A stretch of DNA of 64,000 nucleotides from Lamellibrachia satsuma (Eukaryota > Annelida > Polychaeta > Sabellida > Siboglinidae): positions 728,501 through 792,500 of the forward strand of contig BSQZ01000080.1 in assembly GCA_033239005.1 (NCBI GenBank), in the 5' to 3' direction. A model generated the notes under the pieces. The model worked only from the letters and a program-made list of their open reading frames with translations. It was not told the DNA's origin and searched no databases. This document shows, one piece after another, positions 8,938 through 42,601 of the stretch (within the stretch, counting starts at the first letter, position 1; every line of letters starts with the position of its first letter). Both the position numbers and the translations under genes were made by a program.

Positions 8938-9019
8938 ATACTTACCTGGCACAGGAGATACCGTGATCCACACGGCGGTTCTCCCAGGCCGAGGCCTTCC
9001 CATTGCACTTCGGTTGGGC

Positions 9020-9054
<35 letters not shown>

Positions 9055-9101
9055 GGTGCGTAATTTTTGGTAGTGGGGGACTGCGTTCGCGCTATCCCCT
9101 G
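8938..9101 (+). ncRNA. RNU1: U1 snRNA, array copy 1
   Basis: U1 snRNA pairs with pre-mRNA 5' splice sites in the U1 snRNP. This copy is 164 nt, the same length as human U1, and shares these parts with all copies: the 5' end ATACTTACCTG; stem-loop I (17-47), with stem GGAGA/TCTCC plus ACCG/CGGT; stem-loop II with the U1A-type loop ATTGCAC at 65-71; stem-loop III TTACCC/GGGTAA; Sm site AATTTTTGG; and stem-loop IV closed by a TTCG tetraloop, ending CCCCTG. The loop at 28-37 reads GATCCACACG, where U1-70K normally binds GATCANGAAG. Copy 1 differs from the majority at position 52 (g to c) and 62 (t to c). It is the leftmost copy, in the most diverged unit. Confidence 0.95.
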
Positions 9102-9449
9102 GAAAATGCTAAAAGTTCATTTCTTCTTTTCCTACATTCCAACATCGAGGTTTGTGCTTTTCCTGTGTATTTGTTGAGTTCGCGTGCAGATCACTTGTCC
9201 GCAGTTACGTGATTCACTAATATTACTGGAATATTTATGAGGCCAACGACTGTTTTTTAAATGTTGCATTCGGTGGAATATACCATTTAAAATGTTGCTT
9301 TCGGTGGAGTATATCACATTATAGCGTGACACGGATGTAAAAAACAAGTCAATATTTTCACAACGCATCAGCCATAATTTCGCAGCACTCACAACACATC
9401 ACGATAGCATCATTGAAGCGCTCTAAACGATCATAATTAATGCACACTC

Positions 9450-10140
9450 CACAATGCAGCGTGTATTAGTTGCGTGATTAATCGTGGGTGAATCGCATAC
9501 TTGGGCGTGAGACAAAGGGAAAATTTGTGAAAACTCAACACACACATGGTCCATTACCATCTGACAATGGAGGAATCACAAGAGTAAAGCTATGCTGGAT
9601 AGACACCAATGAATTACTATCATGGAACCCGTCTTCCAGACGACTAGATAATATTAATCATTTAGCTGCAAAAGCAGGCTTTGCCGTGCTCTTGGAAAGC
9701 GAAACAAATAATGGATTTATGTACGGCACATGCGGTATTCCAAAATCTACACAAAGCACGCAGCATAAAATTCACATTCGGACTGCATGTACTTTCCCGG
9801 TTTACCACCTTATAACGTGTCTTCTGGTATATTGTATATTTATTCTATGAAACGTGTTTTAGTATTTCTAATTTGCTTCAGCGCTAATGTTTGTACACCG
9901 TACAATACCCGAAATCATGCAAGCAACTGCACGAGCGTGTTTTTTAAATGTTCCATTCGGTGGAATATACCATTTAAAATGTTGCTTTCGGTGGAGTATA
10001 TCACATTATAGCGTGACACGGATGTCAAAAACAAGTCAATATTTTCACAACGCATCAGCCATAATTTCGCAGCACTCACAACACATCACGATAGCATCAC
10101 TGAAGCGCTCTAAACGATCATAATTAATGCACACTCCACA
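9450..10140 (+). repeat. Array unit that has lost its U1 gene
   Basis: At 9937/9938 the spacer jumps from gcacgagcg straight to tgttttttaaatg. In intact units these two sequences are about 580 bp apart, with U1 and its upstream region between them. The result is a 689-bp unit without U1 between U1 copies 1 and 2. I see no obvious homology at the junction beyond one or two bases. Confidence 0.9.
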
Positions 10141-10893
10141 ATGCAGCGTGTATTAGTTGCGTGATTAATCGTGGGTGAATCGCATACTTGGGCGTGACAC
10201 AAAGGGAAAATTTGTGAAAACTCAAACCCACACATGGTCCATTACCATCTGACAATGGAGGAATCACAAGAGTAAAGCTATGCTGGATAGCCACCAATGA
10301 ATTACTATCATGGAACCCGTCTTCCAGACCACTAGATAATATTGATCATTTAGCTGCAAAAGCAGGCTTTCCCTTGCTCTTGGAAAGCGAAACAAATAAT
10401 GGATTTATGTACGGCACATGCGGTATTCCAAAATCTACACAAAGCACGCAGAATAAAATTCACATATGGACTGCATGTACTTTCCCGGTTTACCACCTTA
10501 TAACGTGTCTTCTGGTATATTGTATATTTATTCTATGAAACGTATTTTAGTATTTCTAATTTGCTTCAGCGCTAATGTTTGTACACCGTACAATAACCGA
10601 AATCATGCAAACAACTGCACGAGCGACCCCTGCCGGAAAGCATCCACACTAATCGAAGCTAAAATATTTTATTGTTGTTTTGCAATTTCAAAACATAGTA
10701 ATATCCTGTTTTAGATAACTAGCAAAAATTTTAATACATTGTAATATATGATAATAATGCAGTAATACTATATACAAATAAATTACGTTAAGAAAAAATA
10801 TGTGTAATAATTTCTACTTTATTCAATTAGTGTGGCACCACATTTTCACCACGACCTCGCCGTACTATTGATGAAAGCGGCGCCTAATAAGGC

Positions 10894-10975
10894 ATACTTA
10901 CCTGGCACAGGAGATACCGTGATCTACACGGCGGTTCTCCCAGGGCGAGGCCTTTCCATTGCACTTCGGTTGGGC

Positions 10976-11010
<35 letters not shown>

Positions 11011-11057
11011 GGTGCGTAATTTTTGGTAGTGGGGGACTGCGTTCGCGCTATCCCCTG
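10894..11057 (+). ncRNA. RNU1: U1 snRNA, array copy 2
   Basis: Differs from the majority only at position 32 (c to t) in the stem-loop I loop, giving GATCTACACG. The spacing to copy 3 is 1267 bp. Confidence 0.94.
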
Positions 11058-12060
11058 GAAAATGCTAAAAGTTCATTTCTTCTTTTCCTACATTCCAACA
11101 TCGAGCTTTGTGCTTTTCCTGTGTATTTGTTGAGTTCGCGTGCAGATCACTTGTCCGCAGTTACGTGATTCACTAATATTACTGGAATATTTATAAGGCC
11201 AACGACTGTTTTTTAAATGTTGCATTCGGTGGAATATACCATTTTAAATGTTGCTTTCTGTGGAATATATCACATTATAGCGTGACACGGATGTCACAAA
11301 CAAGTCAATATTTTCACAACGCATCAGCCATAATTTCGCAGCACTCACAAAACATCACGATAGTATCACTGAAGCACTCTAAACGATCATAATTAATGCA
11401 CACTCCACAATGCAGCGTGTATTATTTGCGTGACTAATCGTGGGTGAATCGCATACTTGGGCGTGAGACAAAGGGAAAATTTGTGAAAGCTCATCCCACA
11501 CATGGTCCATTACCATCTCACAATGGAGGAATCACAATAGTAAAGCTATGCTGGATAGGCACCAATGAATTACTATCATGGAACCCATCTTCCAGATGAC
11601 TAGATAATATTGATCATTTAGCTGCAAAAGCAGGCTTTCCCTTGCTCTTGGAAAGCGAAACAAATAATGGATTTATGTACGGCACATGCGGTATTCCAAA
11701 ATCTACACAAAGCACGCAGCATAAATTCACATTCGGACTGCATGTACTTTCCCGGTTTACCACCTTATAACGTGTCTTCTGGTATATTGTATATTTATTC
11801 TATGAAACGTATTTTAGTATTTCTAATTTGCTTCAGCGCTAATGTTTGTACACCGTACAATACCCGAAATCATGCAAGCAACTGCAGGAGCGACCCCTGC
11901 CAGAAAGCATCAACACTAATCGAAGCTATAATATTTTATTGTTGTTTTGCAATTTCATGACATAGTAATATCCTGTTTTAGATAACTAGTAAAAATTATG
12001 ATACATTGTAATATATGATAATAATGCAGTAATACTATATACAAATAAATTACGTTAAGA

Positions 12061-12160
12061 AACAATATGTGTAATAATTTCTACTTTATTCAATTAGTGT
12101 GGCACCACATTTTCACCACGACCTCGCCGTACTATTGATGAAAGCGGCGCCTACTAAGGC
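12061..12160 (+). promoter_or_regulatory. Upstream region of U1 (representative unit)
   Basis: This is the -100 to -1 region that is nearly identical in 26 of 27 copies. The candidate PSE core tcaccacgacctc starts at -48 (12113). The stretch caattagtgtggcaccacat lies at about -73 to -54. There is no TATA box near -30. Confidence 0.45.
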
Positions 12161-12242
12161 ATACTTACCTGGCACAGGAGATACCGTGATCCACACGGCG
12201 GTTCTCCCAGGGCGAGGCCTTTCCATTGCACTTCGGTTGGGC

Positions 12243-12277
<35 letters not shown>

Positions 12278-12324
12278 GGTGCGTAATTTTTGGTAGTGGG
12301 GGACTGCGTTCGCGCTATCCCCTG
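12161..12324 (+). ncRNA. RNU1: U1 snRNA, array copy 3
   Basis: Matches the majority 164-nt sequence exactly by eye, and is the reference copy for variant positions given in other entries. Its unit carries spacer type A markers: cacagatgtcac, and gcagtctttccc in the 120-codon spacer ORF. Confidence 0.96.
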
Positions 12325-13428
12325 GAAAATGCTAAAAGTTCATTTCTTCTTTTCCTACATTCCAACATCGAGGTTTGTGCTTTTCCTGTGTATTTGTTGA
12401 GTTCGCGTGCAGATCACTTGTCCGCAGTTACGTGATTCACTAATATTACTGGAATATTTATGAGGCCAACGACTGTTTTTTAAATGTTGCATTCGGTGGA
12501 ATATACCATTTTAAATGTTGCTTTCGGTGGAATATATCACATTATAGCGTGACACAGATGTCACAAACAAGTCAATATTTTCACAACGCATCAGCCATAA
12601 TTTCGCACCACTCACAAAGCATCACGATAGCATCACTGAAGCGCTCTAAACGATCATAATTAATGCACACTCCACAATGCAGCGTGTATTATTTGCGTGA
12701 CTAATCGTGGGTGAATCGCATACTTGGGCGTGAGACAAAGGGAAAATTTGTGAAAACTCATCCCACACATGGTCCATTACCATCTCACAATGGAGGAATC
12801 ACAATAGTAAAGCTATGCTGGATAGACACCAATGAATTACTATCATGGAACCCGTCTTCCAGACGACTAGATAATATTGATCATTTAGCTGCAAAAGCAG
12901 TCTTTCCCTTGCTCTTGGAAAGCGAAACAAATAATGGATTTATGTACGGCACATGCGGTATTCCAAAATCTACACAAAGCACGCAGCATAAAATTCACAT
13001 TCGGACTGCATGTACTTTCCCGGTTTACCACCTTATAACGTGTCTTCTGGTATATTTTATATTTATTCTATGAAACGTATTTTAGTATTTCTAATTTGCT
13101 TCAGCGCTAATGTTTGTACACCGTACAATACCCGAAATCATGCAAGCAACTGCACGAGCGACCCCTGCCGGAAAGCATCCACACTAATCGAAGCTATAAT
13201 ATTTTATTGTTGTTTTGCAATTTCAAGACATAGTAATATCCTGTTTTAGATAACTAGTAAAAATTATAATGCATTGTAATATATGATAATAATGCAGTAA
13301 TACTGTATACAAATAAATTACGTTAAGAAACAATATGTGTAACAATTTCTACTTTATTCAATTAGTGTGGCACCACATTTTCACCACGACCTCGCCGTTA
13401 TATTGATGAAAGCGGCGCCTACTAAGGC

Positions 13429-13510
13429 ATACTTACCTGGCACAGGAGATACCGTGATCCACACGGCGGTTCTCCCAGGGCGAGGCCTTTCCATTGCACT
13501 TCGGTTGGGC

Positions 13511-13545
<35 letters not shown>

Positions 13546-13592
13546 GGTGCGTAATTTTTGGTAGTGGGGGACTGCGTTCGCGCTATCCCCTG
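13429..13592 (+). ncRNA. RNU1: U1 snRNA, array copy 4
   Basis: Majority sequence with no difference seen. The upstream region has gccgttatattg in place of gccgtactattg, a variant shared with copy 13, which implies descent by duplication. Confidence 0.95.
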
Positions 13593-14696
13593 GAAAATGC
13601 TAAAAGTTCATTTCTTCTTTTCCTACATTCCAACATCGAGGTTTGTGCTTTTCCTGTGTATTTGTTGAGTTCTCGTGCAGATCACTTGTCCGCAGTTACG
13701 TGATTCACTAATATTACTGGAATATTTATGAGGCCAACGACTGTTTTTTAAATGTTGCATTCGGTGGAATATACCATTTTAAATGTTGCTTTCGGTGGAA
13801 TATATCACATTATAGCGTGACACGGATGTCACAAACAAGTCAATATTTTCACAACGCATCAGCCATAATTTCGCAGCACTCACAAAACATCACGATAGCA
13901 TCACTGAAGCGCTCTAAACGATCATAATTAATGCACACTCCACAATGCAGCGCGTATTATTTGCGTGACTAATCGTGGGTGAATCGCATACTTGGGCGTG
14001 AGACAAAGGGAAAATTTGTGAAAACTCATCCCACACATGGTCCATTACCATCTCACAATGGAGGAATCACAATAGTAAAGCTATGCTGGATAGACACCAA
14101 TGAATTACTATCATGGAACCCGTCTTCCAGACGACTAGATAATATTGATCATTTAGCTGCAAAAGCAGGCTTTCTCTTGCTCTTGGAAAGCAAAACAAAT
14201 AATGGATTTATGTACGGCACATGCGGTATTCCAAAATCTACACAAAGCACGCAGCATAAAATTCACATTCGGACTGCATGTACTTTCCCGGTTTACCACC
14301 TTATAACGTGTCTTCTGGTATATTGTATATTTATTCTATGAAACGTATTTTAGTATTTCTAATTTGCTTCAGCGCTAATGTTTGTACACCGTACAATACC
14401 CGAAATCATGCAAGCAACTGCACGAGCGACCCCTGCCGGAAAGCATCCACAATAATCGAAGCTATAATATTTTATTGTTGTTTTGCAATTTCAAGACATA
14501 GTAATATCCTGTTTTAGATAACTAGTAAAAATTATAATGCATTGTAATATATGATAATAATGCAGTAATACTATATACAAATAAATTACGTTAAGAAACA
14601 ATATGTGTAACAATTTCTACTTTATTCAATTAGTGTGGCACCACATTTTCACCACGACCTCGCCGTACTATTGATGAAAGCGGCGCCTACTAAGGC

Positions 14697-14778
14697 ATAC
14701 TTACCTGGCACAGGAGATACCGTGATCCACACGGCGGTTCTCCCAGGGCGAGGCCTTTCCATTGCACTTCGGTTGGGC

Positions 14779-14813
<35 letters not shown>

Positions 14814-14860
14814 GGTGCGTAATTTTTGGTAGTGGGGGACTGCGTTCGCGCTATCCCCTG
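14697..14860 (+). ncRNA. RNU1: U1 snRNA, array copy 5
   Basis: Majority sequence. The downstream spacer has gatcccttgtccgcag and attacataatag, variants shared with the unit of copy 14. Confidence 0.95.
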
Positions 14861-15964
14861 GAAAATGCTAAAAGTTCATTTCTTCTTTTCCTACATTCCA
14901 ACATCGAGGTTTGTGCTTTTCCTGTGTATTTGTTGAGTTCTCGTGCAGATCCCTTGTCCGCAGTTACTTGATTCACTAATATTACTGGAATATTTATGAG
15001 GCCAACGACTGTTTTTTAAATGTTGCATTCGGTGGAATATACCATTTTAAATGTTGCTTTCGGTGGAATATATTACATAATAGCGTGACACGGATGTCAC
15101 AAACAAGTCAATATTTTCACAACGCATCAGCCATAATTTCGCAGCACTCACAAAACATCACGATAGCATCACTGAAGCGCTCTAAACGATCATAATTAAT
15201 GCACACTCCACAATGCAGCGTGTATTATTTGCGTGACTAATCGTGGGTGAATCGCATACTTGGGCGTGAGACAAAGGGAAAATTTGTGAAAACTCATCCC
15301 ACACATGGTCCATTACCATCTCACAATGGAGGAATCACAATAGTAAAGCTATGCTGGATAGACACCAATGAATTACTATCATGGAACCCGTCTTCCAGAC
15401 GACTAGATAATATTGATCATTTAGCTGCAAAAGCAGGCTTTCCCTTGCTCTTGGAAAGCGAAACAAATAATGGATTTATGTACGGCACATGCGGTATTCC
15501 AAAATCTACACAAAGCACGCAGCATAAAATTCACATTCGGACTGCATGTACTTTCCCGGTTTACCACCTTATAACGTGTCTTCTGGTATATTTTATATTT
15601 ATTCTATGAAACGTATTTTATTATTTCTAATTTGCTTCAGCGCTAATGTTTGTACACCGTACAATACCCGAAATCATGCAAGCAACTGCACGAGCGACCC
15701 CTGCCGGAAAGCATCCACACTAATCGAAGCTATAATATTTTATTGTTGCTTTGCAATTTCAAGACATAGTAATATCCTGTTTTAGATAACTAGTAAAAAT
15801 TATAATACATTGTAATATATGATAATAATGCAGTAATACTGTATACAAATAAATTACGTTAAGAAACAATTTGTGTAATAATTTCTACTTTATTCAATTA
15901 GTGTGGCACCACATTTTCACCACGACCTCGCCGTACTATTGATGAAAGCGGCGCCTACTAAGGC

Positions 15965-16046
15965 ATACTTACCTGGCACAGGAGATACCGTGATCCACAC
16001 GGCGGTTCTCCCAGGGCGAGGCCTTCCCATTGCACTTCGGTTGGGC

Positions 16047-16081
<35 letters not shown>

Positions 16082-16128
16082 GGTGCGTAATTTTTGGTAG
16101 TGGGGGACTGCGTTCGCGCTATCCCCTG
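15965..16128 (+). ncRNA. RNU1: U1 snRNA, array copy 6
   Basis: Differs at position 62 (t to c) in stem II, as do copies 1 and 7. The following spacer leads to the 1212-bp short interval. Confidence 0.94.
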
Positions 16129-17109
16129 GAAAATGCTAAAAGTTCATTTCTTCTTTTCCTACATTCCAACATCGAGGTTTGTGCTTTTCCTGTGTATTTG
16201 TTGAGTTCGCGTGCAGATCACTTGTACGCAGTTACGTGATTCACTAATATTACTGGAATATTTATAAGGCCAACGACTGTTTTTTAAATGTTGCATTCGG
16301 TGGAATATACCATTTTAAATGTTGCTTTCGGTGGAATATATCACATTATAGCGTGACACGGATGTCACAAACAAGTCAATATTTTCACAACGCATCAGCC
16401 ATAATTTCGCAGCACTCACTAAACATCACGATAGCATCACTGAAGCGCTCTAAACGATCATAATTAATGCACACTCCACAATGCAGCGTGTATTATTTGC
16501 GTGACTAATCGTGGGTGAATCGCATACTTGGGCGTGAGACAAAGGGAAAATTTGTGAAAACTCATCCCACACATGGTCCATTACCATCTCACAATGGAGA
16601 AATCACAATAGTAAAGCTATGCTGGATAGACACCAATGAATTACTATCATGGAACCCGTCTTCCAGACGACTAGATAATATTGATCATTTAGCTGCACAA
16701 GCAGGCTTTCCCTTGCTCTTGGAAAGCGAAACAAATAATGGATTTATGTACGGCACATGCGGTATTCCAAAATCTACACAAAGCACGCAGCATAAATTCA
16801 CATTCGGACTGCATGTACTTTCCCGGTTTACCACCTTATAACGTGTTTCTGGTATATTGTATATTTATTCTATGAAACGTATTTTAGTATTTCTAATTTG
16901 CTTCAGCGCTAATGTTTGTACACCGTACAATACCCGAAATCATGCAAGCAACTGCAGGAGCGACCCCTGCCGGAAAGCATCCACACTAATCGAAGCTATA
17001 ATATTTTATTGTTGTTTTGCAATTTCATGACATAGTAATATCCTGTTTAGATAACTAGTAAAAATTATGATACATTGTAATATATGATAATAATGCAGTA
17101 ATACTATAT

Positions 17110-17124
17110 ACAAATCAATAAAAC
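17110..17124 (+). other. 55-56-bp deletion in the U1 copy 7 upstream region
   Basis: The unit reads atacaaatcaataaaacatt where others run from atacaaataaattacg through gtgtggcacc to acattttcacc. The deletion removes roughly -110 to -55 relative to U1 and leaves the tcaccacg candidate PSE core at -48 in place. Confidence 0.85.
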
Positions 17125-17176
17125 ATTTTCACCACGACCTCGCCGTACTATTGATGAAAGCGGCGCCTACTAAGGC

Positions 17177-17258
17177 ATACTTACCTGGCACAGGAGATAC
17201 CGTGATCCACACGGCGGTTCTCCCAGGGCGAGGCCTTCCCATTGCACTTCGGTTGGGC

Positions 17259-17293
<35 letters not shown>

Positions 17294-17340
17294 GGTGCGT
17301 AATTTTTGGTAGTGGGGGACTGCGTTCGCGCTATCCCCTG
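17177..17340 (+). ncRNA. RNU1: U1 snRNA, array copy 7
   Basis: Position 62 is c. The transcribed region is otherwise majority. It is the only copy missing the distal half of its conserved upstream block. Confidence 0.93.
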
Positions 17341-18443
17341 GAAAATGCTAAAAGTTCATTTCTTCTTTTCCTACATTCCAACATCGAGGTTTGTGCTTTT
17401 CCTGTGTATTTGTTGAGTTCTCGTGCAGATCACTTGTACGCAGTTACGTGATTCACTAATATTACTGGAATATTTATAAGGCCAACGACTGTTTTTTAAA
17501 TGTTGCATTCGGTGGAATATACCATTTTAAATGTTGCTTTCGGTGGAATATATCACATTATAGCGTGACACGGATGTCACAAACAAGTCAATATTTTCAC
17601 AACGCATCAGCCATAATTTCGCAGCACTCACAAAACATCACGATAGCATCACTGAAGCGCTCTAAACGATCATAATTAATGCACACTCCACAATGCAGCG
17701 TGTATTATTTGCGTGACTAATCGTGGGTGAATCGCATACTTGGGCGTGAGACAAAGGGAAAATTTGTGAAAGCTCATCCCACACATGGTCCATTACCATC
17801 TCACAATGGAGGAATCACAATAGTAAAGCTATGCTGGATAGGCACCAATGAATTACTATCATGGAACCCATCTTCCAGACGACTAGATAATATTGATCAT
17901 TTAGCTGCAAAAGCAGGCTTTCCCTTGCTCTTGGAAAGCGAAACAAATAATGGATTTATGTACGGCACATGCGGTATTCCAAAATCTACACAAAGCACGC
18001 AGCATAAATTCACATTCGGACTGCATGTACTTTCCCGGTTTACCACCTTATAACGTGTCTTCTGGTATATTGTATATTTATTCTATGAAACGTATTTTAG
18101 TATTTCTAATTTGCTTCAGCGCTAATGTTTGTACACCGTACAATACCCGAAATCATGCAAGCAACTGCAGGAGCGACCCCTGCCGGAAAGCATCCACACT
18201 AATCGAAGCTATAATATTTTATTGTTGTTTTGCAATTTCATGACATAGTAATATCCTGTTTTAGATAACTAGTAAAAATTATAATGCATTGTAATATATG
18301 ATAATAATGCAGTAATACTGTATACAAATAAATTACGTTAAGAAACAATATGTGTAATAATTTCTACTTTATTCAATTAGTGTGGCACCACATTTTCACC
18401 ACGACTTCGCCGTACTATTGATGAAAGCGGCGCCTACTAAGGC

Positions 18444-18525
18444 ATACTTACCTGGCACAGGAGATACCGTGATCCACACGGCGGTTCTCCCAGGGCGAGG
18501 CCTTTCCATTGCACTTCGGTTGGGC

Positions 18526-18560
<35 letters not shown>

Positions 18561-18607
18561 GGTGCGTAATTTTTGGTAGTGGGGGACTGCGTTCGCGCTA
18601 TCCCCTG
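18444..18607 (+). ncRNA. RNU1: U1 snRNA, array copy 8
   Basis: Majority sequence. Upstream has acgacttcgcc for acgacctcgcc. The downstream unit carries the gcagtctt variant without the other type A markers, so this unit looks recombinant. Confidence 0.95.
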
Positions 18608-19711
18608 GAAAATGCTAAAAGTTCATTTCTTCTTTTCCTACATACCAACATCGAGGTTTGTGCTTTTCCTGTGTATTTGTTGAGTTCGCGTGCAGATCAC
18701 TTGTCCGCAGTTACGTGATTCACTAATATTACTGGAATATTTATGAGGCCAACGACTGTTTTTTAAATGTTGCATTCGGTGGAATATACCATTTTAAATG
18801 TTGCTTTCGGTGGAATATATCACATTATAGCGTGACACGGATGTCACAAACAAGTCAATATTTTCACAACGCATCAGCCATAATTTCGCAGCACTCACAA
18901 AACATCACGATAGCATCACTGAAGCGCTCTCAACGATCATAATTAATGCACACTCCACAATGCAGCGTGTATTATTTGCGTGACTAATCGTGGGTGAATC
19001 GCATACTTGGGCGTGAGACAAAGGGAAAATTTGTGAAAACTCATCCCACACATGGTCCATTACCATCTCACAATGGAGGAATCACAATAGTAAAGCTATG
19101 CTGGATAGACACCAATGAATTACTATCATGGAACCCGTCTTCCAGACGACTAGATAATATTGATCATTTAGCTGCAAAAGCAGTCTTTCCCTTGCTCTTG
19201 GAAAGCGAAACAAATAATGGATTTATGTACGGCACATGCGGTATTCCAAAATCTACACAAAGCACGCAGCATAAAATTCACATTCGGACTGCATGTACTT
19301 TCCCGGTTTACCACCTTATAACGTGTCTTCTGGTATATTTTATATTTATTCTATGAAACGTATTTTAGTATTTCTAATTTGCTTCAGCGCTAATGTTTGT
19401 ACACCGTACAATACCCGAAATCATGCAAGCAACTGCACGAGCGACCCCTGCCGGAAAGCATCCACACTAATCGAAGCTATAATATTTTATTGTTGTTTTG
19501 CAATTTCAAGACATAGTAATATCCTGTTTTAGATAACTAGTAAAAATTATAATGCATTGTAATATATGATAATAATGCAGTAATACTGTATACAAATAAA
19601 TTACGTTAAGAAACAATATGTGTAATAATTTCTACTTTATTCAATTAGTGTGGCACCACACCTTCACCACGACCTCGCCGTACTATTGATGAAAGCGGCG
19701 CCTACTAAGGC

Positions 19712-19793
19712 ATACTTACCTGGCACAGGAGATACCGTGATCCACACGGCGGTTCTCCCAGGGCGAGGCCTTTCCATTGCACTTCGGTTGGGC

Positions 19794-19828
<35 letters not shown>

Positions 19829-19874
19829 GGTGCGTAATTTTTGGTAGTGGGGACTGCGTTCGCGCTATCCCCTG
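19712..19874 (+). ncRNA. RNU1: U1 snRNA, array copy 9
   Basis: 163 nt: one G is missing from the G run that starts stem IV (tagtggggac). Upstream has caccacaccttcacc instead of caccacattttcacc, next to the candidate PSE. Confidence 0.94.
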
Positions 19875-29931: not shown

Positions 29932-29966
<35 letters not shown>

Positions 29967-31115: not shown

Positions 31116-31196
31116 ATACTTACCTGGCACAGGAGATACCGTGATCTTACGGCGGTTCTCCCAGGGCGAGGCCTTTCCATTGCACTTCGGTTGGGC

Positions 31197-31231
<35 letters not shown>

Positions 31232-31278
31232 GGTGCGTAATTTTTGGTACTGGGGGACTGCGTTCGCGCTATCCCCTG
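31116..31278 (+). ncRNA. RNU1: U1 snRNA, array copy 18, altered loop I
   Basis: Stem-loop I reads gatcttacggcgg instead of gatccacacggcgg: CACAC is replaced by TTAC, so the loop is one base shorter. Position 136 type is c. Length is 163 nt. Confidence 0.92.
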
Positions 31279-32382
31279 GAAAATGCTAAAAGTTCATTTC
31301 TTCTTTTCCTACATTCCAACATCGAGGTTTGTGCTTTTCCTGTGTATTTGTTGAGTTCTCGTGCAGATCACTTGTCCGCAGTTACGTGATTCACTAATAT
31401 TACTGGAATATTTATGAGGCCAACGACTGTTTTTTAAATGTTGCATTCGGTGGAATATACCATTTTAAATGTTGCTTTCGGTGGAATATATCACATTATA
31501 GCGTGACACAGATGTCACAAACAAGTCAATATTTTCACAACGCATCAGCCATAATTTCGCACCACTCACAAAGCATCACGATAGCATCACTGAAGCGCTC
31601 TAAACGATCATAATTAATGCACACTCCACAATGCAGCGTGTATTATTTGCGTGACTAATCGTGGGTGAATCGCATACTTGGGCGTGAGACAAAGGGAAAA
31701 TTTGTGAAAACTCATCCCACACATGGTCCATTACCATCTCACAATGGAGGAATCACAATAGTAAAGCTATGCTGGATAGACACCAATGAATTACTATCAT
31801 GGAACCCGTCTTCCAGACGACTAGATAATATTGATCATTTAGCTGCAAAAGCAGTCTTTCCCTTGCTCTTGGAAAGCGAAACAAATAATGGATTTATGTA
31901 CGGCACATGCGGTATTCCAAAATCTACACAAAGCACGCAGCATAAAATTCACATTCGGACTGCATGTACTTTCCCGGTTTACCACCTTATAACGTGTCTT
32001 CTGGTATATTTTATATTTATTCTATGAAACGTATTTTAGTATTTCTAATTTGCTTCAGCGCTAATGTTTGTACACCGTACAATACCCGAAATCATGCAAG
32101 CAACTGCACGAGCGACCCCTGCCGGAAAGCATCCACACTAATCGAAGCTATAATATTTTATTGTTGTTTTGCAATTTCAAGACATAGTAATATCCTGTTT
32201 TAGATAACTAGTAAAAATTATAATGCATTGTAATATATGATAATAATGCAGTAATACTGTATACAAATAAATTACGTTAAGAAACAATATGTGTAATAAT
32301 TTCTACTTTATTCAATTAGTGTGGCACCACATTTTCACCACGACCTCGCCGTACTATTGATGAAAGCGGCGCCTACTAAGGC

Positions 32383-32464
32383 ATACTTACCTGGCACAGG
32401 AGATACCGTGATCCACACGGCGGTTCTCCCAGGGCGAGGCCTTTCCATTGCACTTCGGTTGGGC

Positions 32465-32499
<35 letters not shown>

Positions 32500-32546
32500 G
32501 GTGCGTAATTTTTGGTAGTGGGGGACTGCGTTCGCGCTATCCCCTG
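32383..32546 (+). ncRNA. RNU1: U1 snRNA, array copy 19
   Basis: Majority sequence. It is followed by the first of two adjacent type E spacer units. Confidence 0.95.
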
Positions 32547-33650
32547 GAAAATGCTAAAAGTTCATTTCTTCTTTTCCTACATTCCAACATCGAGGTTTGT
32601 GCTTTTCCTGTGTATTTGTTGAGTTCTCGTGCAGATCACTTGTCCGCAGTTACGTGATTCACTAATATTACTGGAATATTTATGAGGCCAACGACTGTTT
32701 TTTAAATGTTGCATTCGGTGGAATATACCATTTTAAATGTTGCTTTCGGTGGAATATATCACATTATAGCGTGACACGGATGTCACAAACAAGTCAATAT
32801 TTTCACAACGCATCAGCCATAATTTCGCAGCACTCACAAAACATCACGATAGCATCACTGAAGCGCTCTAAACGATCATAATTAATGCACACTCCACAAT
32901 GCAGCGTGTATTATTTGCGTGACTAATCGTGGGTGAATCGCATACTTGGGCGTGAGACAAAGGGAAAATTTGTGAAAACTCATCCCACACATGGTCCATT
33001 ACCATCTCACAATGGAGGAATCACAATAGTAAAGCTATGCTGGATAGACACCAATGAATTACTATCATGGAACCCGTCTTCCAGACGACTAGATAATATT
33101 GATCATTTAGCTGCAAAAGCAGGCTTTCTCTTGCTCTTGGAAAGCGAAACAAATAATGGATTTATGTACGGCACATGCGGTATTCCAAAATCTACACAAA
33201 GCACGCAGCATAAAATTCACATTCGGACTGCATGTACTTTCCCGGTTTACCACCTTATAACGTGTCTTCTGGTATATTTTATATTTATTCTATGAAACGT
33301 ATTTTAGTATTTCTAATTTGCTTCAGCGTTAATGTTTGTACACCGTACAATACCTGAAATCATGCAAGCAACTGCACGAGCGACCCCTGCCGGAAAGCAT
33401 CCACACTAATCGAAGCTATAATATTTTATTGTTGTTTTGCAATTTCAAGACATAGTAATATCCTGTTTTAGATAACTAGTAAAAATTATAATGCATTGTA
33501 ATATATGATAATAATGCAGTAATACTGTATACAAATAAATTACGTTAAGAAACAATATGTGTAATAATTTCTACTTTATTCAATTAGTGTGGCACCACAT
33601 TTTCACCACGACCTCGCCGTACTATTGATGAAAGCGGCGCCTACTAAGGC

Positions 33651-33732
33651 ATACTTACCTGGCACAGGAGATACCGTGATCCACACGGCGGTTCTCCCAG
33701 GGCGAGGCCTTTCCATTGCACTTCGGTTGGGC

Positions 33733-33767
<35 letters not shown>

Positions 33768-33814
33768 GGTGCGTAATTTTTGGTAGTGGGGGACTGCGTT
33801 CGCGCTATCCCCTG
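33651..33814 (+). ncRNA. RNU1: U1 snRNA, array copy 20
   Basis: Majority sequence. It is followed by the second type E unit. Confidence 0.95.
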
Positions 33815-34918
33815 GAAAATGCTAAAAGTTCATTTCTTCTTTTCCTACATTCCAACATCGAGGTTTGTGCTTTTCCTGTGTATTTGTTGAGTTCTCGTGC
33901 AGATCACTTGTCCGCAGTTACGTGATTCACTAATATTACTGGAATATTTATGAGGCCAACGACTGTTTTTTAAATGTTGCATTCGGTGGAATATACCATT
34001 TTAAATGTTGCTTTCGGTGGAATATATCACATTATAGCGTGACACGGATGTCACAAACAAGTCAATATTTTCACAACGCATCAGCCATAATTTCGCAGCA
34101 CTCACAAAACATCACGATAGCATCACTGAAGCGCTCTAAACGATCATAATTAATGCACACTCCACAATGCAGCGTGTATTATTTGCGTGACTAATCGTGG
34201 GTGAATCGCATACTTGGGCGTGAGACAAAGGGAAAATTTGTGAAAACTCATCCCACACATGGTCCATTACCATCTCACAATGGAGGAATCACAATAGTAA
34301 AGCTATGCTGGATAGACACCAATGAATTACTATCATGGAACCCGTCTTCCAGACGACTAGATAATATTGATCATTTAGCTGCAAAAGCAGGCTTTCTCTT
34401 GCTCTTGGAAAGCGAAACAAATAATGGGTTTATGTACGGCACATGCGGTATTCCAAAATCTACACAAAGCACGCAGCATAAAATTCACATTCGGACTGCA
34501 TGTACTTTCCCGGTTTACCACCTTATAACGTGTCTTCTGGTATATTTTATATTTATTCTATGAAACGTATTTTAGTATTTCTAATTTGCTTCAGGGTTAA
34601 TGTTTGTACACCGTACAATACCTGAAATCATGCAAGCAACTGCACGAGCGACCCCTGCCGGAAAGCATCCACACTAATCGAAGCTATAATATTTTATTGT
34701 TGTTTTGCAATTTCAAGACATAGTAATATCCTGTTTTAGATAACTAGTAAAAATTATAATGCATTGTAATATATGATAATAATGCAGTAATACTGTATAC
34801 AAATAAATTACGTTAAGAAACAATATGTGTAATAATTTCTACTTTATTCAATTAGTGTGGCACCACATTTTCACCACGACCTCGCCGTACTATTGATGAA
34901 AGCGGCGCCTACTAAGGC

Positions 34919-35082
34919 ATACTTACCTGGCACAGGAGATACCGTGATCCACACGGCGGTTCTCCCAGGGCGAGGCCTTTCCATTGCACTTCGGTTGGGC
35001 TGACCCTTGCGATTTCCCCAAATGTGGGTAACTCGGGTGCGTAATTTTTGGTAGTGGGGGACTGCGTTCGCGCTATCCCCTG
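34919..35082 (+). ncRNA. RNU1: U1 snRNA, array copy 21
   Basis: Position 97 is a to t (gcgatttcccc). This breaks one pair of the otherwise perfect stem III (TTACCC/GGGTAA). Confidence 0.94.
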
Positions 35083-36186
35083 GAAAATGCTAAAAGTTCA
35101 TTTCTTCTTTTCCTACATTCCAACATCGAGGTTTGTGCTTTTCCTGTGTATTTGTTGAGTTCGCGTGCAGATCACTTGTCCGCAGTTACGTGATTCACTA
35201 ATATTACTGGAATATTTATGAGGCCAACGACTGTTTTTTTAATGTTGCATTCGGTGGAATATACCATTTTAAATGTTGCTTTCGGTGGAATATATCACAT
35301 TATAGCGTGACACGGATGTCACAAACAAATCAATATTTTCACAACGCATCAGCCATAATTTCGCAGCACTCACAAAACATCACGATAGCATCACTGAAGC
35401 GCTCTAAACGATCATAATTAATGCACACTCCACAATGCAGCGCGTATTATTTGCGTGACTAATCGTGGGTGAATCGCATACTTGGGCGTGAGACAAAGGG
35501 AAAATTTGTGAAAACTCATCCCACACATGGTCCATTACCATCTCACAATGGAGGAATCACAATAGTAAAGCTATGCTGGATAGACACCAATGAATTACTA
35601 TCATGGAACCCGTCTTCCAGACGACTAGATAATATTGATCATTTAGCTGCAAAAGCAGGCTTTCTCTTGCTCTTGGAAAGCAAAACAAATAATGGATTTA
35701 TGTACGGCACATGCGGTATTCCAAAATCTACACAAAGCACGCAGCATAAAATTCACATTCGGACTGCATGTACTTTCCCGGTTTACCACCTTATAACGTG
35801 TCTTCTGGTATATTGTATATTTATTCTATGAAACGTATTTTAGTATTTCTAATTTGCTTCAGCGCTAATGTTTGTACACCGTACAATACCCGAAATCATG
35901 CAAGCAACTGCACGAGCGACCCCTGCCGGAAAGCATCCACAATAATCGAAGCTATAATATTTTATTGTTGTTTTGCAATTTCAAGACATAGTAATATCCT
36001 GTTTTAGATAACTAGTAAAAATTATAATGCATTGTAATATATGATAATAATGCAGTAATACTATATACAAATAAATTACGTTAAGAAACAATATGTGTAA
36101 CAATTTCTACTTTATTCAATTAGTGTGGCACCACATTTTCACCACGACCTCGCCGTACTATTGATGAAAGCAGCGCCTACTAAGGC

Positions 36187-36268
36187 ATACTTACCTGGCA
36201 CAGGAGATACCGTGATCCACACGGCGGTTCTCCCAGGGCGAGGCCTTTCCATTGCACTTCGGTTGGGC

Positions 36269-36303
<35 letters not shown>

Positions 36304-36350
36304 GGTGCGTAATTTTTGGTACTGGGGGACTGCGTTCGCGCTATCCCCTG
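36187..36350 (+). ncRNA. RNU1: U1 snRNA, array copy 22
   Basis: Position 136 is c, and the upstream has aaagcagcgcc. Both are shared with copy 16, so these two units are probably recent duplicates. Confidence 0.94.
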
Positions 36351-37454
36351 GAAAATGCTAAAAGTTCATTTCTTCTTTTCCTACATTCCAACATCGAGGT
36401 TTGTGCTTTTCCTGTGTATTTGTTGAGTTCTCGTGCAGATCACTTGTCCGCAGTTACGTGATTCACTAATATTACTGGAATATTTATGAGGCCAACGACT
36501 GTTTTTTAAATGTTGCATTCGGTGGAATATACCATTTTAAATGTTGCTTTCGGTGGAATATATTACATAATAGCGTGACACGGATGTCACAAACAAGTCA
36601 ATATTTTCACAACGCATCAGCCATAATTTCGCAGCACTCACAAAACATCACGATAGCATCACTGAAGCGCTCTAAACGATCATAATTAATGCACACTCCA
36701 CAATGCAGCGTGTATTATTTGCGTGACTAATCGTGGGTGAATCGCATACTTGGGCGTGAGACAAAGGGAAAATTTGTGAAAACTCATCCCACACATGGTC
36801 CATTACCATCTCACAATGGAGGAATCACAATAGTAAAGCTATGCTGGATAGACACCAATGAATTACTATCATGGAACCCGTCTTCCAGACGACTAGATAA
36901 TATTGATCATTTAGCTGCAAAAGCAGGCTTTCCCTTGCTCTTGGAAAGCGAAACAAATAATGGATTTATGTACGGCACATGCGGTATTCCAAAATCTACA
37001 CAAAGCACGCAGCATAAAATTCACATTCGGACTGCATGTACTTTCCCGGTTTACCACCTTATAACGTGTCTTCTGGTATATTTTATATTTATTCTATGAA
37101 ACGTATTTTAGTATTTCTAATTTGCTTCAGCGCTAATGTTTGTACACCGTACAATACCCGAAATCATGCAAGCAACTGCACGAGCGACCCCTGCCGGAAA
37201 GCATCCACACTAATCGAAGCTATAATATTTTATTGTTGTTTTGCAATTTCAAGACATAGTAATATCCTGTTTTAGATAACTAGTAAAAATTATAATACAT
37301 TGTAATATATGATAATAATGCAGTAATACTGTATACAAATAAATTACGTTAAGAAACAATATGTGTAACAATTTCTACTTTATTCAATTAGTGTGGCACC
37401 ACATTTTCACCACGACCTCGCCGTACTATTGATGAAAGCGGCGCCTACTAAGGC

Positions 37455-37536
37455 ATACTTACCTGGCACAGGAGATACCGTGATCCACACGGCGGTTCTC
37501 CCAGGGCGAGGCCTTTCCATTGCACTTCGGTTGGGC

Positions 37537-37571
<35 letters not shown>

Positions 37572-37617
37572 GGTGCGTAATTTTTGGTAGTGGGGACTGC
37601 GTTCGCGCTATCCCCTG
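37455..37617 (+). ncRNA. RNU1: U1 snRNA, array copy 23
   Basis: One G is missing in stem IV (163 nt). Otherwise majority. Confidence 0.94.
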
Positions 37618-38720
37618 GAAAATGCTAAAAGTTCATTTCTTCTTTTCCTACATACCAACATCGAGGTTTGTGCTTTTCCTGTGTATTTGTTGAGTTCGCG
37701 TGCAGATCACTTGTCCGCAGTTACGTGATTCACTAATATTACTGGAATATTTATGAGGCCAACGACTGTTTTTAAATGTTGCATTCGGTGGAATATACCA
37801 TTTTAAATGTTGCTTTCGGTGGAATATATCACATTATAGCGTGACACGGATGTCACAAACAAGTCAATATTTTCACAACGCATCAGCCATAATTTCGCAG
37901 CACTCACAAAACATCACGATAGCATCACTGAAGCGCTCTAAACGATCATAATTAATGCACACTCCACAATGCAGCGTGTATTATTTGCGTGACTAATCGT
38001 GGGTGAATCGCATACTTGGGCGTGAGACAAAGGGAAAATTTGTGAAAACTCATCCCACACATGGTCCATTACCATCTCACAATGGAGGAATCACAATAGT
38101 AAAGCTATGCTGGATAGACACCACTGAATTACTATCATGGAACCCGTCTTCCAGACGACTAGATAATATTGATCATTTAGCTGCAAAAGCAGGCTTTCCC
38201 TTGCTCTTGGAAAGCGAAACAAATAATGGATTTATGTACGGCACATGCGGTATTCCAAAATCTACACAAAGCACGCAGCATAAAATTCACATTCGGACTG
38301 CATGTACTTTCCCGGTTTACCACCTTATAACGTGTCGTCTGGTATATTTTATATTTATTCTATGAAACGTATTTTAGTATTTCTAATTTGCTTCAGCGCT
38401 AATGTTTGTACACCGTACAATACCCGAAATCATGCAAGCAACTGCACGAGCGACCCCTGCCGGAAAGCATCCACACTAATCGAAGCTATAATATTTTATT
38501 GTTGTTTTGCAATTTCAAGACATAGTAATATCCTGTTTTAGATAACTAGTAAAAATTATAATACATTGTAATATATGATAATAATGCAGTAATACTGTAT
38601 ACAAATAAATTACGTTAAGAAACAATATGTGTAACAATTTCTACTTTATTCAATTAGTGTGGCACCACATTTTCACCACGACCTCGCCGTACTATTGATG
38701 AAAGCGGCGCCTACTAAGGC

Positions 38721-38802
38721 ATACTTACCTGGCACAGGAGATACCGTGATCCACACGGCGGTTCTCCCAGGGCGAGGCCTTTCCATTGCACTTCGGTTGG
38801 GC

Positions 38803-38837
<35 letters not shown>

Positions 38838-38884
38838 GGTGCGTAATTTTTGGTAGTGGGGGACTGCGTTCGCGCTATCCCCTG
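38721..38884 (+). ncRNA. RNU1: U1 snRNA, array copy 24
   Basis: Majority sequence. The downstream type A unit has private changes (gtgcatcgcat, catagaacc). Confidence 0.95.
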
Positions 38885-39987
38885 GAAAATGCTAAAAGTT
38901 CATTTCTTCTTTTCCTACATTCCAACATCGAGGTTTGTGCTTTTCCTGTGTATTTGTTGAGTTCTCGTGCAGATCACTTGTCCGCAGTTACGTGATTCAC
39001 TAATATTACTGGAATATTTATGAGGCCAACGACTGTTTTTTAAATGTTGCATTCGGTGGAATATACCATTTTAAATGTTGCTTTCGGTGGAATATATCAC
39101 ATCATAGCGTGACACAGATGTCACAAACAAGTCAATATTTTCACAACGCATCAGCCATAATTTCGCACCACTCACAAAGCATCACGATAGCATCACTGAA
39201 GCGCTCTAAACGATCATAATTAATGCACACTCCACAATGCAGCGTGTATTATTTGCGTGACTAATCGTGGGTGCATCGCATACTTGGGCGTGAGACAAAG
39301 GGAAAATTTGTGAAAACTCATCCCACACATGGTCCATTACCATCTCACAATGGAGGAATCACAATAGTAAAGCTATGCTGGATAGACACCAATGAATTAC
39401 TATCATAGAACCCGTCTTCCAGACGACTAGATAATATTGATCATTTAGCTGCAAAAGCAGTCTTTCCTTTGCTCTTGGAAAGCGAAACAAATAATGGATT
39501 TATGTACGGCACATGCGGTATTCCAAAATCTACACAAAGCACGCAGCATAAAATTCACATTCGGACTGCATGTACTTTCCCGGTTTACCACCTTATAACG
39601 TGTCTTCTGGTATATTTTATATTTATTCTATGAAACGTATTTTAGTATTTCTAATTTGCTTCAGCGCTAATGTTTGTACACCGTACAATACCCGAAATCA
39701 TGCAAGCAACTGCACGAGCGACCCCTGCCGGAAAGCATCCACACTAATCGAAGCTATAATATTTTATTGTTGTTTTGCAATTTCAAGACATAGTAATATC
39801 CTGTTTTAGATAACTAGTAAAAATTATAATGCATTGTAATATATGATAATAATGCAGTAATACTGTATACAAATAAATTACGTTAAGAAAAATATGTGTA
39901 ATAATTTCTACTTTATTCAATTAGTGTGGCACCACATTTTCACCACGACCTCGCCGTACTATTGATGAAAGCGGCGCCTACTAAGGC

Positions 39988-40069
39988 ATACTTACCTGGC
40001 ACAGGAGATACCGTGATCCACACGGCGGTTCTCCCAGGGCGAGGCCTTTCCATTGCACTTCGGTTGGGC

Positions 40070-40104
<35 letters not shown>

Positions 40105-40150
40105 GGTGCGTAATTTTTGGTAGTGGGGACTGCGTTCGCGCTATCCCCTG
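39988..40150 (+). ncRNA. RNU1: U1 snRNA, array copy 25
   Basis: One G is missing in stem IV (163 nt). The first downstream base also differs (cccctgaaaatgc). Confidence 0.94.
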
Positions 40151-41252
40151 AAAATGCTAAAAGTTCATTTCTTCTTTTCCTACATTCCAACATCGAGGTT
40201 TGTGCTTTTCCTGTGTATTTGTTGAGTTCTCGTGCAGATCACTTGTCCGCAGTTACGTGATTCACTAATATTACTGGAATATTTATGAGGCCAACGACTG
40301 TTTTTTAAATGTTGCATTCGGTGGAATATACCATTTTAAATGTTGCTTTCGGTGGAATATATCACATTATAGCGTGACACGGATGTCACAAACAAGTCAA
40401 TATTTTCACAACGCATCAGCCATAATTTCGCAGCACTCACAAAACATCACGATAGCATCACTGAAGCACTCTAAACGATCATAATTAATGCACACTCCAC
40501 AATGCAGCGTGTATTATTTGCGTGACTAATCGTGGGTGAATCGCATACTTGGGCGTGAGACAAAGGGAAAATTTGTGAAAACTCATCCCACACATGGTCC
40601 ATTACCATCTCACAATGGAGGAATCACAATAGTAAAGCTATGCTGGATAGACACCAATGAATTACTATCATGGAACCCGTCTTCCAGACGACTAGATAAT
40701 ATTGATCATTTAGCTGCACAAGCAGGCTTTTCTTGCTCTTGGAAAGCGAAACAAATAATGGATTTATGTACGGCACATGCGGTATTCCAAAATCTACACA
40801 AAGCACGCAGCATAAAATTCACATTCGGACTGCATGTACTTTCCCGGTTTACCACCTTATAACGTGTCTTCTGGTATATTTTATATTTATTCTATGAAAC
40901 GTATTTTAGTATTTCTAATTTGCTTCAGCGTTAATGTTTGTACACCGTACAATACCCGAAATCATGCAAGCAACTGCACGAGCGACCCCTGCCGGAAAGC
41001 ATCCACACTAATCGAAGCTATAATATTTTATTGTTGTTTTGCAATTTCAAGACATAGTAATATCCTGTTTTAGATAACTAGTAAAAATTATAATGCATTG
41101 TAATATATGATAATAATGCAGTAATACTGTATACAAATAAATTACGTTAAGAAACAATATGTGTAATAATTTCTACTTTATTCAATTAGTGTGGCACCAC
41201 ATTTTCACCACGACCTCGCCGTACTATTGATGAAAGCGGCGCCTACTAAGGC

Positions 41253-41334
41253 ATACTTACCTGGCACAGGAGATACCGTGATCCACACGGCGGTTCTCCC
41301 AGGGCGAGGCCTTTCCATTGCACTTCGGTTGGGC

Positions 41335-41369
<35 letters not shown>

Positions 41370-41416
41370 GGTGCGTAATTTTTGGTAGTGGGGGACTGCG
41401 TTCGCGCTATCCCCTG
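41253..41416 (+). ncRNA. RNU1: U1 snRNA, array copy 26
   Basis: Majority sequence. Confidence 0.95.
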
Positions 41417-42519
41417 GAAAATGCTAAAAGTTCATTTCTTCTTTTCCTACATTCCAACATCGAGGTTTGTGCTTTTCCTGTGTATTTGTTGAGTTCTCGT
41501 GCAGATCACTTGTCCGCAGTTACGTGATTCACTAATATTACTGGAATATTTATGAGGCCAACGACTGTTTTTTAATGTTGCATTCGGTGGAATATACCAT
41601 TTTAAATGTTGCTTTCGGTGGAATATATCACATTATAGCGTGACACGGATGTCACAAACAAGTCAATATTTTCACAACGCATCAGCCATAATTTCGCAGC
41701 ACTCACAAAACATCACGATAGCATCACTGAAGCGCTCTAAACGATCATAATTAATGCACACTCCACAATGCAGCGTGTATTATTTGCGTGACTAATCGTG
41801 GGTGAATCGCATACTTGGGCGTGAGACAAAGGGAAAATTTGTGAAAACTCATCCCACACATGGTCCATTACCATCTCACAATGGAGGAATCACAATAGTA
41901 AAGCTATGCTGGATAGACACCAATGAATTACTATCATGGAACCCGTCTTCCAGACGACTAGATAATATTGATCATTTAGCTGCAAAAGCAGGCTTTCTCT
42001 TGCTCTTGGAAAGCGAAACAAATAATGGGTTTATGTACGGCACATGCGGTATTCCAAAATCTACACAAAGCACGCAGCATAAAATTCACATTCGGACTGC
42101 ATGTACTTTCCCGGTTTACCACCTTATAACGTGTCTTCTGGTATATTTTATATTTATTCTATGAAACGTATTTTATTATTTCTAATTTGCTTCAGCGCTA
42201 ATGTTTGTACACCGTACAATACCCGAAATCATGCAAGCAACTGCACGAGCGACCCCTGCCGGAAAGCATCCACACTAATCGAAGCTATAATATTTTACTC
42301 TTGTTTTGCAATTTCAAGACATAGTAATATCCTGTTTTAAATAACTAGTAAAAATTATAATGCATTGTAATATATGATAATAATGCAGTAATACTGTATA
42401 CAAATAAATTACGTTAAGAAACAATATGTGTAATAATTTCTACTTTATTCAATTAGTGTGGCACCACATTTTCACCACGACCTCGCCGTACTATTGATGA
42501 AAGCGGCGCCTACTAAGGC

Positions 42520-42601
42520 ATACTTACCTGGCACAGGAGATACCGTGATCCACACGGCGGTTCTCCCAGGGCGAGGCCTTTCCATTGCACTTCGGTTGGG
42601 C

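What the first reader, a model, noticed from the sequence alone, without database searches (positions are those of the whole stretch)
8965..42556. Every copy has a changed U1-70K binding loop that can refold
Seen: loop I (positions 28-37) is GAUCCACACG in nearly all copies, where U1 RNAs across animals have GAUCANGAAG, the U1-70K site. The change also makes CCGUG (24-28) exactly complementary to CACGG (34-38), so an alternative hairpin with loop AUCCA is possible. The stem below (GGAGA/UCUCC, ACCG/CGGU) stays perfect. Inference: either a lineage-specific or tissue-specific U1 variant with altered U1-70K binding, or a U1-derived satellite no longer used for splicing.
Basis: partly seen in the sequence, partly recalled or inferred. 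Interest (0 to 1): 0.9.

Follow-up and report, generated by a model that had tools for sequence, protein, structure and literature searches.

The report
Animal U1 RNAs with rewritten protein-binding loop
Every U1 splicing-RNA gene found in this animal's genome carries an unusual version of the loop that the partner protein U1-70K normally grips, and that protein's gripping loop is one residue shorter than usual, so this lineage may have rewritten a very conserved contact of the splicing machinery.

Summary
The window has 27 tandem U1 genes (unit ~1,267 bp). Loop I is GAUCCACACG in 25, GAUCUACACG in one and a 9-nt loop in one; none is GAUCANGAAG. It is genome-wide: of 61 SL1 matches on seven contigs, 34 are this class, 27 a second class (26 GAUCACCAUG, one GAUCAACAUG; an array on C18), none canonical. 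Both classes changed G34 and A36; in human U1, G34 lies in U1-70K's loop 3 and A36 closes the RNA loop.

These look like working genes. Five unrelated flanks and a U2 gene share an element at -58; RNA body, promoter element and 3' flank vary least; 5' end, U1A loop and Sm site are intact in both class references. The one U1-70K gene found keeps eight of nine checked human RNA contacts, and its loop 3 is one residue short, as in 6 of 300 parsed homologues. The alternative hairpin is isoenergetic in the window class only and needs just C34 and C36. Best reading: a lineage-wide rewritten SL1/U1-70K contact, probably in an annelid. Binding and expression are untested.

The parts
8938..42683 (+). 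tandem array of 27 U1 snRNA genes, unit ~1,267 bp (first spacing 1,956, one 1,212)
12161..12324 (+). U1 copy 3, reference; identical 164-nt RNA in 12 of 27 copies
12188..12197 (+). loop I of the reference copy (U1 nt 28-37), GATCCACACG
12184..12198 (+). possible alternative hairpin CCGUG-AUCCA-CACGG (U1 nt 24-38)
12103..12118 (+). promoter-like element CACCACATTTTCACCA at -58 of the reference copy, shared with unrelated U1 loci and a U2 gene
12223..12236 (+). U1A loop II region CCATTGCACTTCGG (AUUGCAC intact)
12285..12293 (+). Sm site AATTTTTGG
8938..9101 (+). U1 copy 1; G52C, T62C
10894..11057 (+). U1 copy 2; loop variant GATCTACACG
13429..13592 (+). U1 copy 4
14697..14860 (+). U1 copy 5
15965..16128 (+). 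U1 copy 6
17177..17340 (+). U1 copy 7
18444..18607 (+). U1 copy 8
19712..19874 (+). U1 copy 9
20979..21142 (+). U1 copy 10
22246..22407 (+). U1 copy 11; changes in the Sm-site region (A125 deleted, T127C), lowest Rfam score 139.8
23512..23674 (+). U1 copy 12
24779..24942 (+). U1 copy 13
26046..26209 (+). U1 copy 14
27313..27476 (+). U1 copy 15
28581..28744 (+). U1 copy 16
29849..30012 (+). U1 copy 17
31116..31278 (+). U1 copy 18; shortened 9-nt loop GATCTTACG and G136C
32383..32546 (+). U1 copy 19
33651..33814 (+). U1 copy 20
34919..35082 (+). U1 copy 21
36187..36350 (+). U1 copy 22
37455..37617 (+). U1 copy 23
38721..38884 (+). U1 copy 24
39988..40150 (+). U1 copy 25
41253..41416 (+). U1 copy 26
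42520..42683 (+). U1 copy 27

Best explanation
These are the working spliceosomal U1 genes of a lophotrochozoan animal, probably an annelid, in which the U1-70K half-site of loop I has been rewritten genome-wide. SHOWN: every U1 SL1 found has a non-canonical loop I in one of two classes, A (GAUCCACACG: the window array plus dispersed copies) and B (GAUCACCAUG: a second array). Both keep the 5' half G28-A29-U30-C31, plus A35, G37 and G38, and both have lost G34 and A36. SHOWN: the only U1-70K gene found keeps the protein residues that contact G28, U30 and C31, but RRM loop 3, which in human embraces C33 and G34, is one residue shorter than usual. INFERRED: U1-70K still docks on SL1 through the conserved G28-C31 half, while the 32-36 half is read by a remodelled, shorter loop 3 that accepts pyrimidine C34. 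INFERRED: RNA and protein changed together, class B (two loop changes from human) being closer to the ancestor than class A (four). INFERRED: the two arrays make two U1 snRNP populations differing in SL1, possibly stage-specific as reported for sea urchin and Xenopus isoforms.
For: Census: 61 SL1 matches, reversed-pattern control 0; 34 class A, 27 class B, 0 canonical. A pattern for canonical SL1 with up to one mismatch hits once in 735 Mb; that site reads GATGAGGAAG and is not among the U1 matches. Far-upstream flanks of five unrelated contexts are 25-35% identical while class A RNAs are 99.4-100% identical. The best match to the -58 element falls at -58 in all five (0-4 mismatches; 0.55% of 2000 shuffles of one flank reach 4) and in a U2 gene (4 mismatches; 3 of 2000 shuffles as good). 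In the array, differences per site are 0.55% in the RNA, 0.65% around the -58 element, 0.82% from there to the start and 0 in the first 30 nt downstream, against 2.8% and 1.0% in the two spacer parts. Class B changes A19-U45 to G19-C45. U1-70K: one PF12220 match, seven exons with GT/AG borders; F106, Y112, F148, R172, L175, D177, R190 and R191 kept; the loop 3 segment YGPVKRITMVSTTDSKPRGYAFI has 23 residues where 289 of 300 parsed homologues have 24. Human contacts: PMC4383343 section 6, read whole.
Against: No expression or binding data. The short protein loop is not unique: 6 of 300 parsed homologues also have 23 residues (Megaselia, its tree neighbour P0219, two Trichuris, and unnamed P0270 and P0311) and 5 have 25-26; whether their U1 loops are changed is unknown. 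The 318 homologues are capped listings (best 120 of each search) with near-duplicates, not an even sample. K138 is lost here but also varies in other animals (T in Helobdella, N in Limulus). U1-70K beyond residue 190 of the spliced model was not recovered (human L196, R200). Only one genome could be examined, so co-change is one event, not a correlation. Class B also turns the A21-U43 pair into A-G. Gene conversion could homogenise the RNA bodies without selection. Ten of the 62 SL1s were seen only by pattern, not scored as whole U1. A canonical-loop U1 with a diverged stem would escape both strict patterns; the looser one gave 30 sites, below its reversed control of 42, not examined further. 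The lineage call rests on one short-protein tree (86/81, not a starred fork; Owenia, also an annelid by recall, falls outside).
Confidence: 0.55

Rival explanations
1. Neutral clade feature: the second half of loop I tolerates change, U1-70K binds mainly through G28-C31, and the loop 3 deletion is coincidental.
For: The G28-C31 half and its protein contacts are unchanged; two different loops coexist in one genome; the loop 3 segment departs from 24 residues in 11 of 300 homologues.
Against: Rfam's consensus line writes GAUCA-GAAG in capitals, i.e. strongly conserved (the reading of capitals is recalled), and 33 of 34 class A loops are identical across six contigs, which does not look like drift.
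Confidence: 0.25
2. Loss or strong weakening of U1-70K binding to SL1: U1-70K stays on the particle through its N-terminal contacts with the Sm ring, or is absent from these snRNPs.
For: Four of ten loop bases are changed, including C33/G34 and the A29-A36 closing pair. Some human variant U1 snRNPs are said to lack U1-70K (PMC5159530, passages), and a cryptophyte nucleomorph U1 has no apparent U1-70K site (PMC6461891, passages).
Against: U1-70K is retained with eight of nine checked RNA-contact residues, and residues 160-192 are identical to human, which would be expected to erode without a ligand.
Confidence: 0.12
3. A two-state stem-loop: class A SL1 switches between the 10-nt-loop fold and the CCGUG/CACGG hairpin to regulate U1-70K binding.
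For: Both folds -12.3 kcal/mol, P 0.50 and 0.48; complementarity kept in 26 of 27 window copies.
Against: Needs only C34 and C36 (16 of 256 loops); class B folds with P 0.998 in the standard register; energies are for naked RNA.
Confidence: 0.06
4. U1-derived satellite or pseudogene array not used for splicing, the real U1 being elsewhere.
For: Some copies are damaged (31116, 22246); canonical U1 could sit in unassembled sequence.
Against: No canonical U1 SL1 found in the assembly; dispersed copies with unrelated flanks carry the same RNA; -58 element shared with U2.
Confidence: 0.02

Closest known systems
Metazoan spliceosomal U1 snRNA (Rfam RF00003)
   Same: Full-length model match, 5' AUACUUACCU, loop II AUUGCAC, Sm site AAUUUUUGG, 139.8-155.5 bits in the window
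   Different: Loop I lacks GAUCANGAAG in every copy found; two loop classes, both with G34C and A36 to pyrimidine
Embryonic/somatic U1 isoform sets of sea urchin, Xenopus, mouse and fly (PMC4291461, abstract and passages)
   Same: Several U1 sequence classes in one genome; class B found only in a tandem array, class A in an array and dispersed
   Different: Here the classes differ in the U1-70K loop itself and no class has the standard loop; expression unknown
Human variant U1 snRNAs (PMC5159530, passages)
   Same: U1-like RNAs, some reported to lack U1-70K
   Different: In human they accompany standard U1; here no standard U1 is found
Cryptophyte nucleomorph U1 (PMC6461891, passages)
   Same: No apparent standard U1-70K site in the U1
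   Different: There the U1-70K gene is missing from the nucleomorph genome; here U1-70K is present and nearly intact

Membership tests
U1 snRNA (RF00003) | Covariance-model score above 69.5 bits | tested here: met
   27 of 27 window copies, 139.8-155.5 bits; 42 of 42 scored in the whole genome, 17 of them window copies; ten further SL1 matches were not scored
U1 snRNA (RF00003) | 5' splice-site pairing sequence ACUUACCU at the 5' end | tested here: met
   27 of 27 window copies; both class references
U1 snRNA (RF00003) | U1A loop AUUGCAC and Sm site AAUUUUUGG | tested here: met
   both class references; one window copy (22246) is altered in the Sm-site region
U1 snRNA (RF00003) | Conserved loop I GAUCANGAAG (a conserved trait; not required by the Rfam score) | tested here: not met
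   0 of 27 in the window, 0 of 61 in the genome
U1 snRNA (RF00003) | snRNA-type promoter and transcription | tested here: inconclusive
   element at -58 shared by five U1 contexts and one U2 gene; flanks of C82 and of the second C90 copy not seen; transcription not testable here
U1-70K (PF12220 + RRM_1) | N-terminal domain and RRM present | tested here: met
   PF12220 104.3 bits, PF00076 66.2 bits on the 190-residue spliced model
U1-70K (PF12220 + RRM_1) | Residues that contact SL1 in human | tested here: inconclusive
   eight of nine checked kept: F106, Y112, F148, R172, L175, D177, R190, R191 (against PMC4383343); K138 not kept, but it varies in other animals; L196 and R200 not recovered
U1-70K (PF12220 + RRM_1) | 24-residue YG..GYAFI segment (loop 3 length; usual, not defining) | tested here: not met
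   23 residues; 289 of 300 parsed homologues have 24, 6 have 23, 5 have 25-26; 18 of 318 not parsed
Developmentally regulated U1 isoforms | Different stages or tissues use different classes | not testable with these tools
   no RNA data

The most novel reading that the evidence does not exclude
An animal lineage has replaced one of the oldest RNA-protein contacts of the spliceosome by an orthogonal pair: U1 SL1 without G34 and A36, read by a U1-70K with a shortened loop 3. It runs two such U1 populations from two tandem arrays, and no standard U1 is found in the assembly.
Probability: 0.35. Interest if true: 0.75.

Novelty: new variant of a known kind. Interest (0 to 1): 0.55.

Why it matters
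Loop I and U1-70K are treated as a fixed contact of the spliceosome. An animal in which every U1 gene found departs from it, with an oddity in the protein loop that holds those bases, offers a natural experiment on which bases U1-70K really needs and how an essential RNA-protein interface can change. It also warns that antisense probes, consensus searches and human-derived rules for loop I need not hold across animals.

Tried and rejected
Satellite reading: rejected on dispersed copies, shared -58 element and low variation of the transcribed unit. Assembly or read error: rejected, since the same loop recurs on six contigs in several unrelated flanks. Refolding switch: kept only as a low-probability rival after the enumeration. 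Species identity: the first 3 kb of ten large contigs and up to 10 kb of ten of the smallest gave no run of the seven telomere motifs tried, no COX1 match was found, so the lineage rests on a U1-70K tree of own plus 49 of the 219 homologues held at that time (Capitella, found later, is not in it). A 20-mer of SL1 hit one contig in genome contigs, Hydrogenophaga (L053); its 8 kb held gives no Rfam match and dense bacterial reading frames: chance. Two viral-contig scans found nothing. The broad canonical-loop pattern gave 30 matches against 42 for the reversed control, i.e. chance level. An earlier variation count that included the two aberrant units gave the same order: RNA 0.5%, spacers 1.3-3.1%; one search replaces it. 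Literature: nine answered searches listed no paper that I recognised as describing an animal whose U1 genes all lack the standard loop; I saw listings and abstract openings, plus passages of nine papers (in one, PMC4383343, section 6 whole). The library misses most subscription journals.
Full report
What is there. Rfam finds 27 U1 genes on the + strand, 8938-42683, spaced about 1,267 bp. Twelve copies share one 164-nt sequence; the others differ from it by one to five aligned changes. Loop I is GAUCCACACG in 25 of 27, GAUCUACACG in the copy at 10894, and a 9-nt loop in the copy at 31116. Compared with the human loop GAUCACGAAG (PMC10404622, passages), positions 32, 33, 34 and 36 differ, while 28-31, 35 and 37 are kept.

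It is genome-wide. The window is C80:728501-792500 of a 735-Mb, 279-contig assembly. A pattern covering SL1 with the loop's second half left open gives 61 matches on seven contigs and none in the reversed control. Class A: GATCCACACG 33 times (C10 three, C14, C36, C80 25, C82, C90 two) and GATCTACACG once. Class B: GATCACCATG 26 times in a ~2.06-kb array on C18, and GATCAACATG once there with one mismatch. The window copy at 31116 is missed by the pattern, so 62 SL1s are known. Of these, 52 were scored as whole U1 by Rfam (27 and 25 more); eight on C18, the C82 one and the second on C90 were seen only by the pattern. A canonical loop would have fitted the pattern; none did. A direct search for the canonical stem-loop with one mismatch allowed found one site, reading GATGAGGAAG and not among the U1 matches. 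A canonical loop in a strongly diverged stem would escape both patterns.

They look like genes, not satellite. Five unrelated flank contexts (C80, C18, C10, C90, C14/C36) are only 25-35% identical far upstream, but carry CACCACATTTTCACCA or a relative with at most four mismatches exactly at -58 (the motif was taken from C80 and C14, so their zero mismatches are by construction; of 2000 shuffles of the C10 flank, 0.55% reach four mismatches). The one U2 gene whose flank was fetched has TACCACAAATTCAGCA at -58 as well (four mismatches; 3 of 2000 shuffles as good). Within the window array, 22 units compared with the unit at 12161 differ by 0.55% in the RNA, 0.65% around the -58 element, 0.82% from there to the start and 0 in the first 30 nt downstream, against 2.8% upstream and 1.0% downstream in the spacer (the first two, the deleted 17177 and the last unit were left out). 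Class B changes the lower-stem pair A19-U45 to G19-C45, though it also turns A21-U43 into A-G. The 5' end, the U1A loop AUUGCAC and the Sm site are unchanged in both class references.

What the changed bases do in human U1. In the crystal structure, C31 and A32 stack on F106 and F148, C33 and G34 are embraced by RRM loop 3 between R191 and K138, A29 pairs with A36 to close the loop, G28 sits between R172 and Y112, and U30 packs on L175 and bonds with D177 (PMC4383343 section 6, read whole). Class A changes A32, C33, G34 and A36; class B only G34 and A36. The G28-C31 half is untouched in both.

The protein partner. One match to the U1-70K N-terminal domain was found, on C9. Seven exons with GT/AG borders give residues 1-190; Pfam finds both domains. 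F106, Y112, F148, R172, L175, D177, R190 and R191 are kept; residues 160-192 (human numbering) are identical to human. The segment YG...GYAFI, which contains loop 3, has 23 residues and lacks K138. Among 318 homologues from three searches (each listing only its best 120, with near-duplicates), 300 could be parsed: 289 have 24, six have 23 (Megaselia and its tree neighbour P0219, two Trichuris, P0270, P0311), three have 25 and two have 26. Shortening is thus rare but recurrent. K138 varies in other animals, so I give no weight to its loss. Whether the six others have changed U1 loops is not known, and this is the strongest open point against a specific co-change.

Lineage. The U1-70K tree puts this protein in a group with Helobdella and unnamed rows (86/81, below the starred level) within a lophotrochozoan side (95/81). 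Owenia, an annelid by recall, falls outside that group with Lingula. I read this as probably annelid; it is one short protein, and no COX1 match exists in the assembly.

The refolding idea. But any loop with C34, A35 and C36 does nearly the same, 16 of 256 with four positions free, and class B stays in the standard register. I treat the alternative hairpin as a by-product unless probing shows otherwise.

Conclusion. Shown: a genome in which all U1 genes found carry a non-canonical U1-70K loop in two classes, with the other signals intact in both class references, and a single U1-70K gene found with a rare one-residue shortening of the loop that holds the changed bases. Inferred: these U1 RNAs are expressed and U1-70K binds them through a remodelled half-site. 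Not shown: expression, affinity, stage use, spread among relatives.

Noticed in passing
G000:C18:6371885-6425414 (L001-L010, L031): A second tandem U1 array of 27 SL1 matches, unit ~2.06 kb, with its own loop I class GATCACCATG and a weaker -58 element (4 mismatches); could be a stage-specific isoform set.
   Followed up: partly
G000:C2:5872291-5872483 (L060) and C21:8332159-8332362: Only three U2 matches passed the E-value limit (46 of 33577 candidates scored) against 61 U1 SL1 matches; two strong U2 on C2 (193 bits) and a diverged one on C21 (93 bits). U1 looks far more amplified than U2, though counts are lower bounds.
   Followed up: no
9102-10893: The spacing between the first and second U1 copies is 1,956 instead of ~1,267 bp, and the gap holds a second spacer copy (the 31-bp duplication recurs at 9942) without a U1 gene.
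   Followed up: no
43558-43857 and 57065-57364: A 300-bp direct repeat, 98% identical, 13.5 kb apart, each next to a long (AT)n tract; the first lies just past the end of the U1 array.
   Followed up: no
1426-1783, 47693-48171, 49898-50320, 61625-63563: Minisatellites: 6.1 copies of 59 bp (100% alike), 9 copies of 53 bp, 22 copies of 19 bp, and ~57 copies of a 33-bp unit.
   Followed up: no
U1-70K homologues P0125, P0126, P0297, P0204: The loop 3 segment is lengthened (25-26 residues) in metagenomic rows, two of which (P0125, P0126) fall in the Helobdella group of the tree, and in Mya; their U1 loop I would be worth reading.
   Followed up: no
window 22246-22407: One U1 copy has a changed Sm-site region (A125 deleted, T127C) and may be a pseudogene inside the array.
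   Followed up: no
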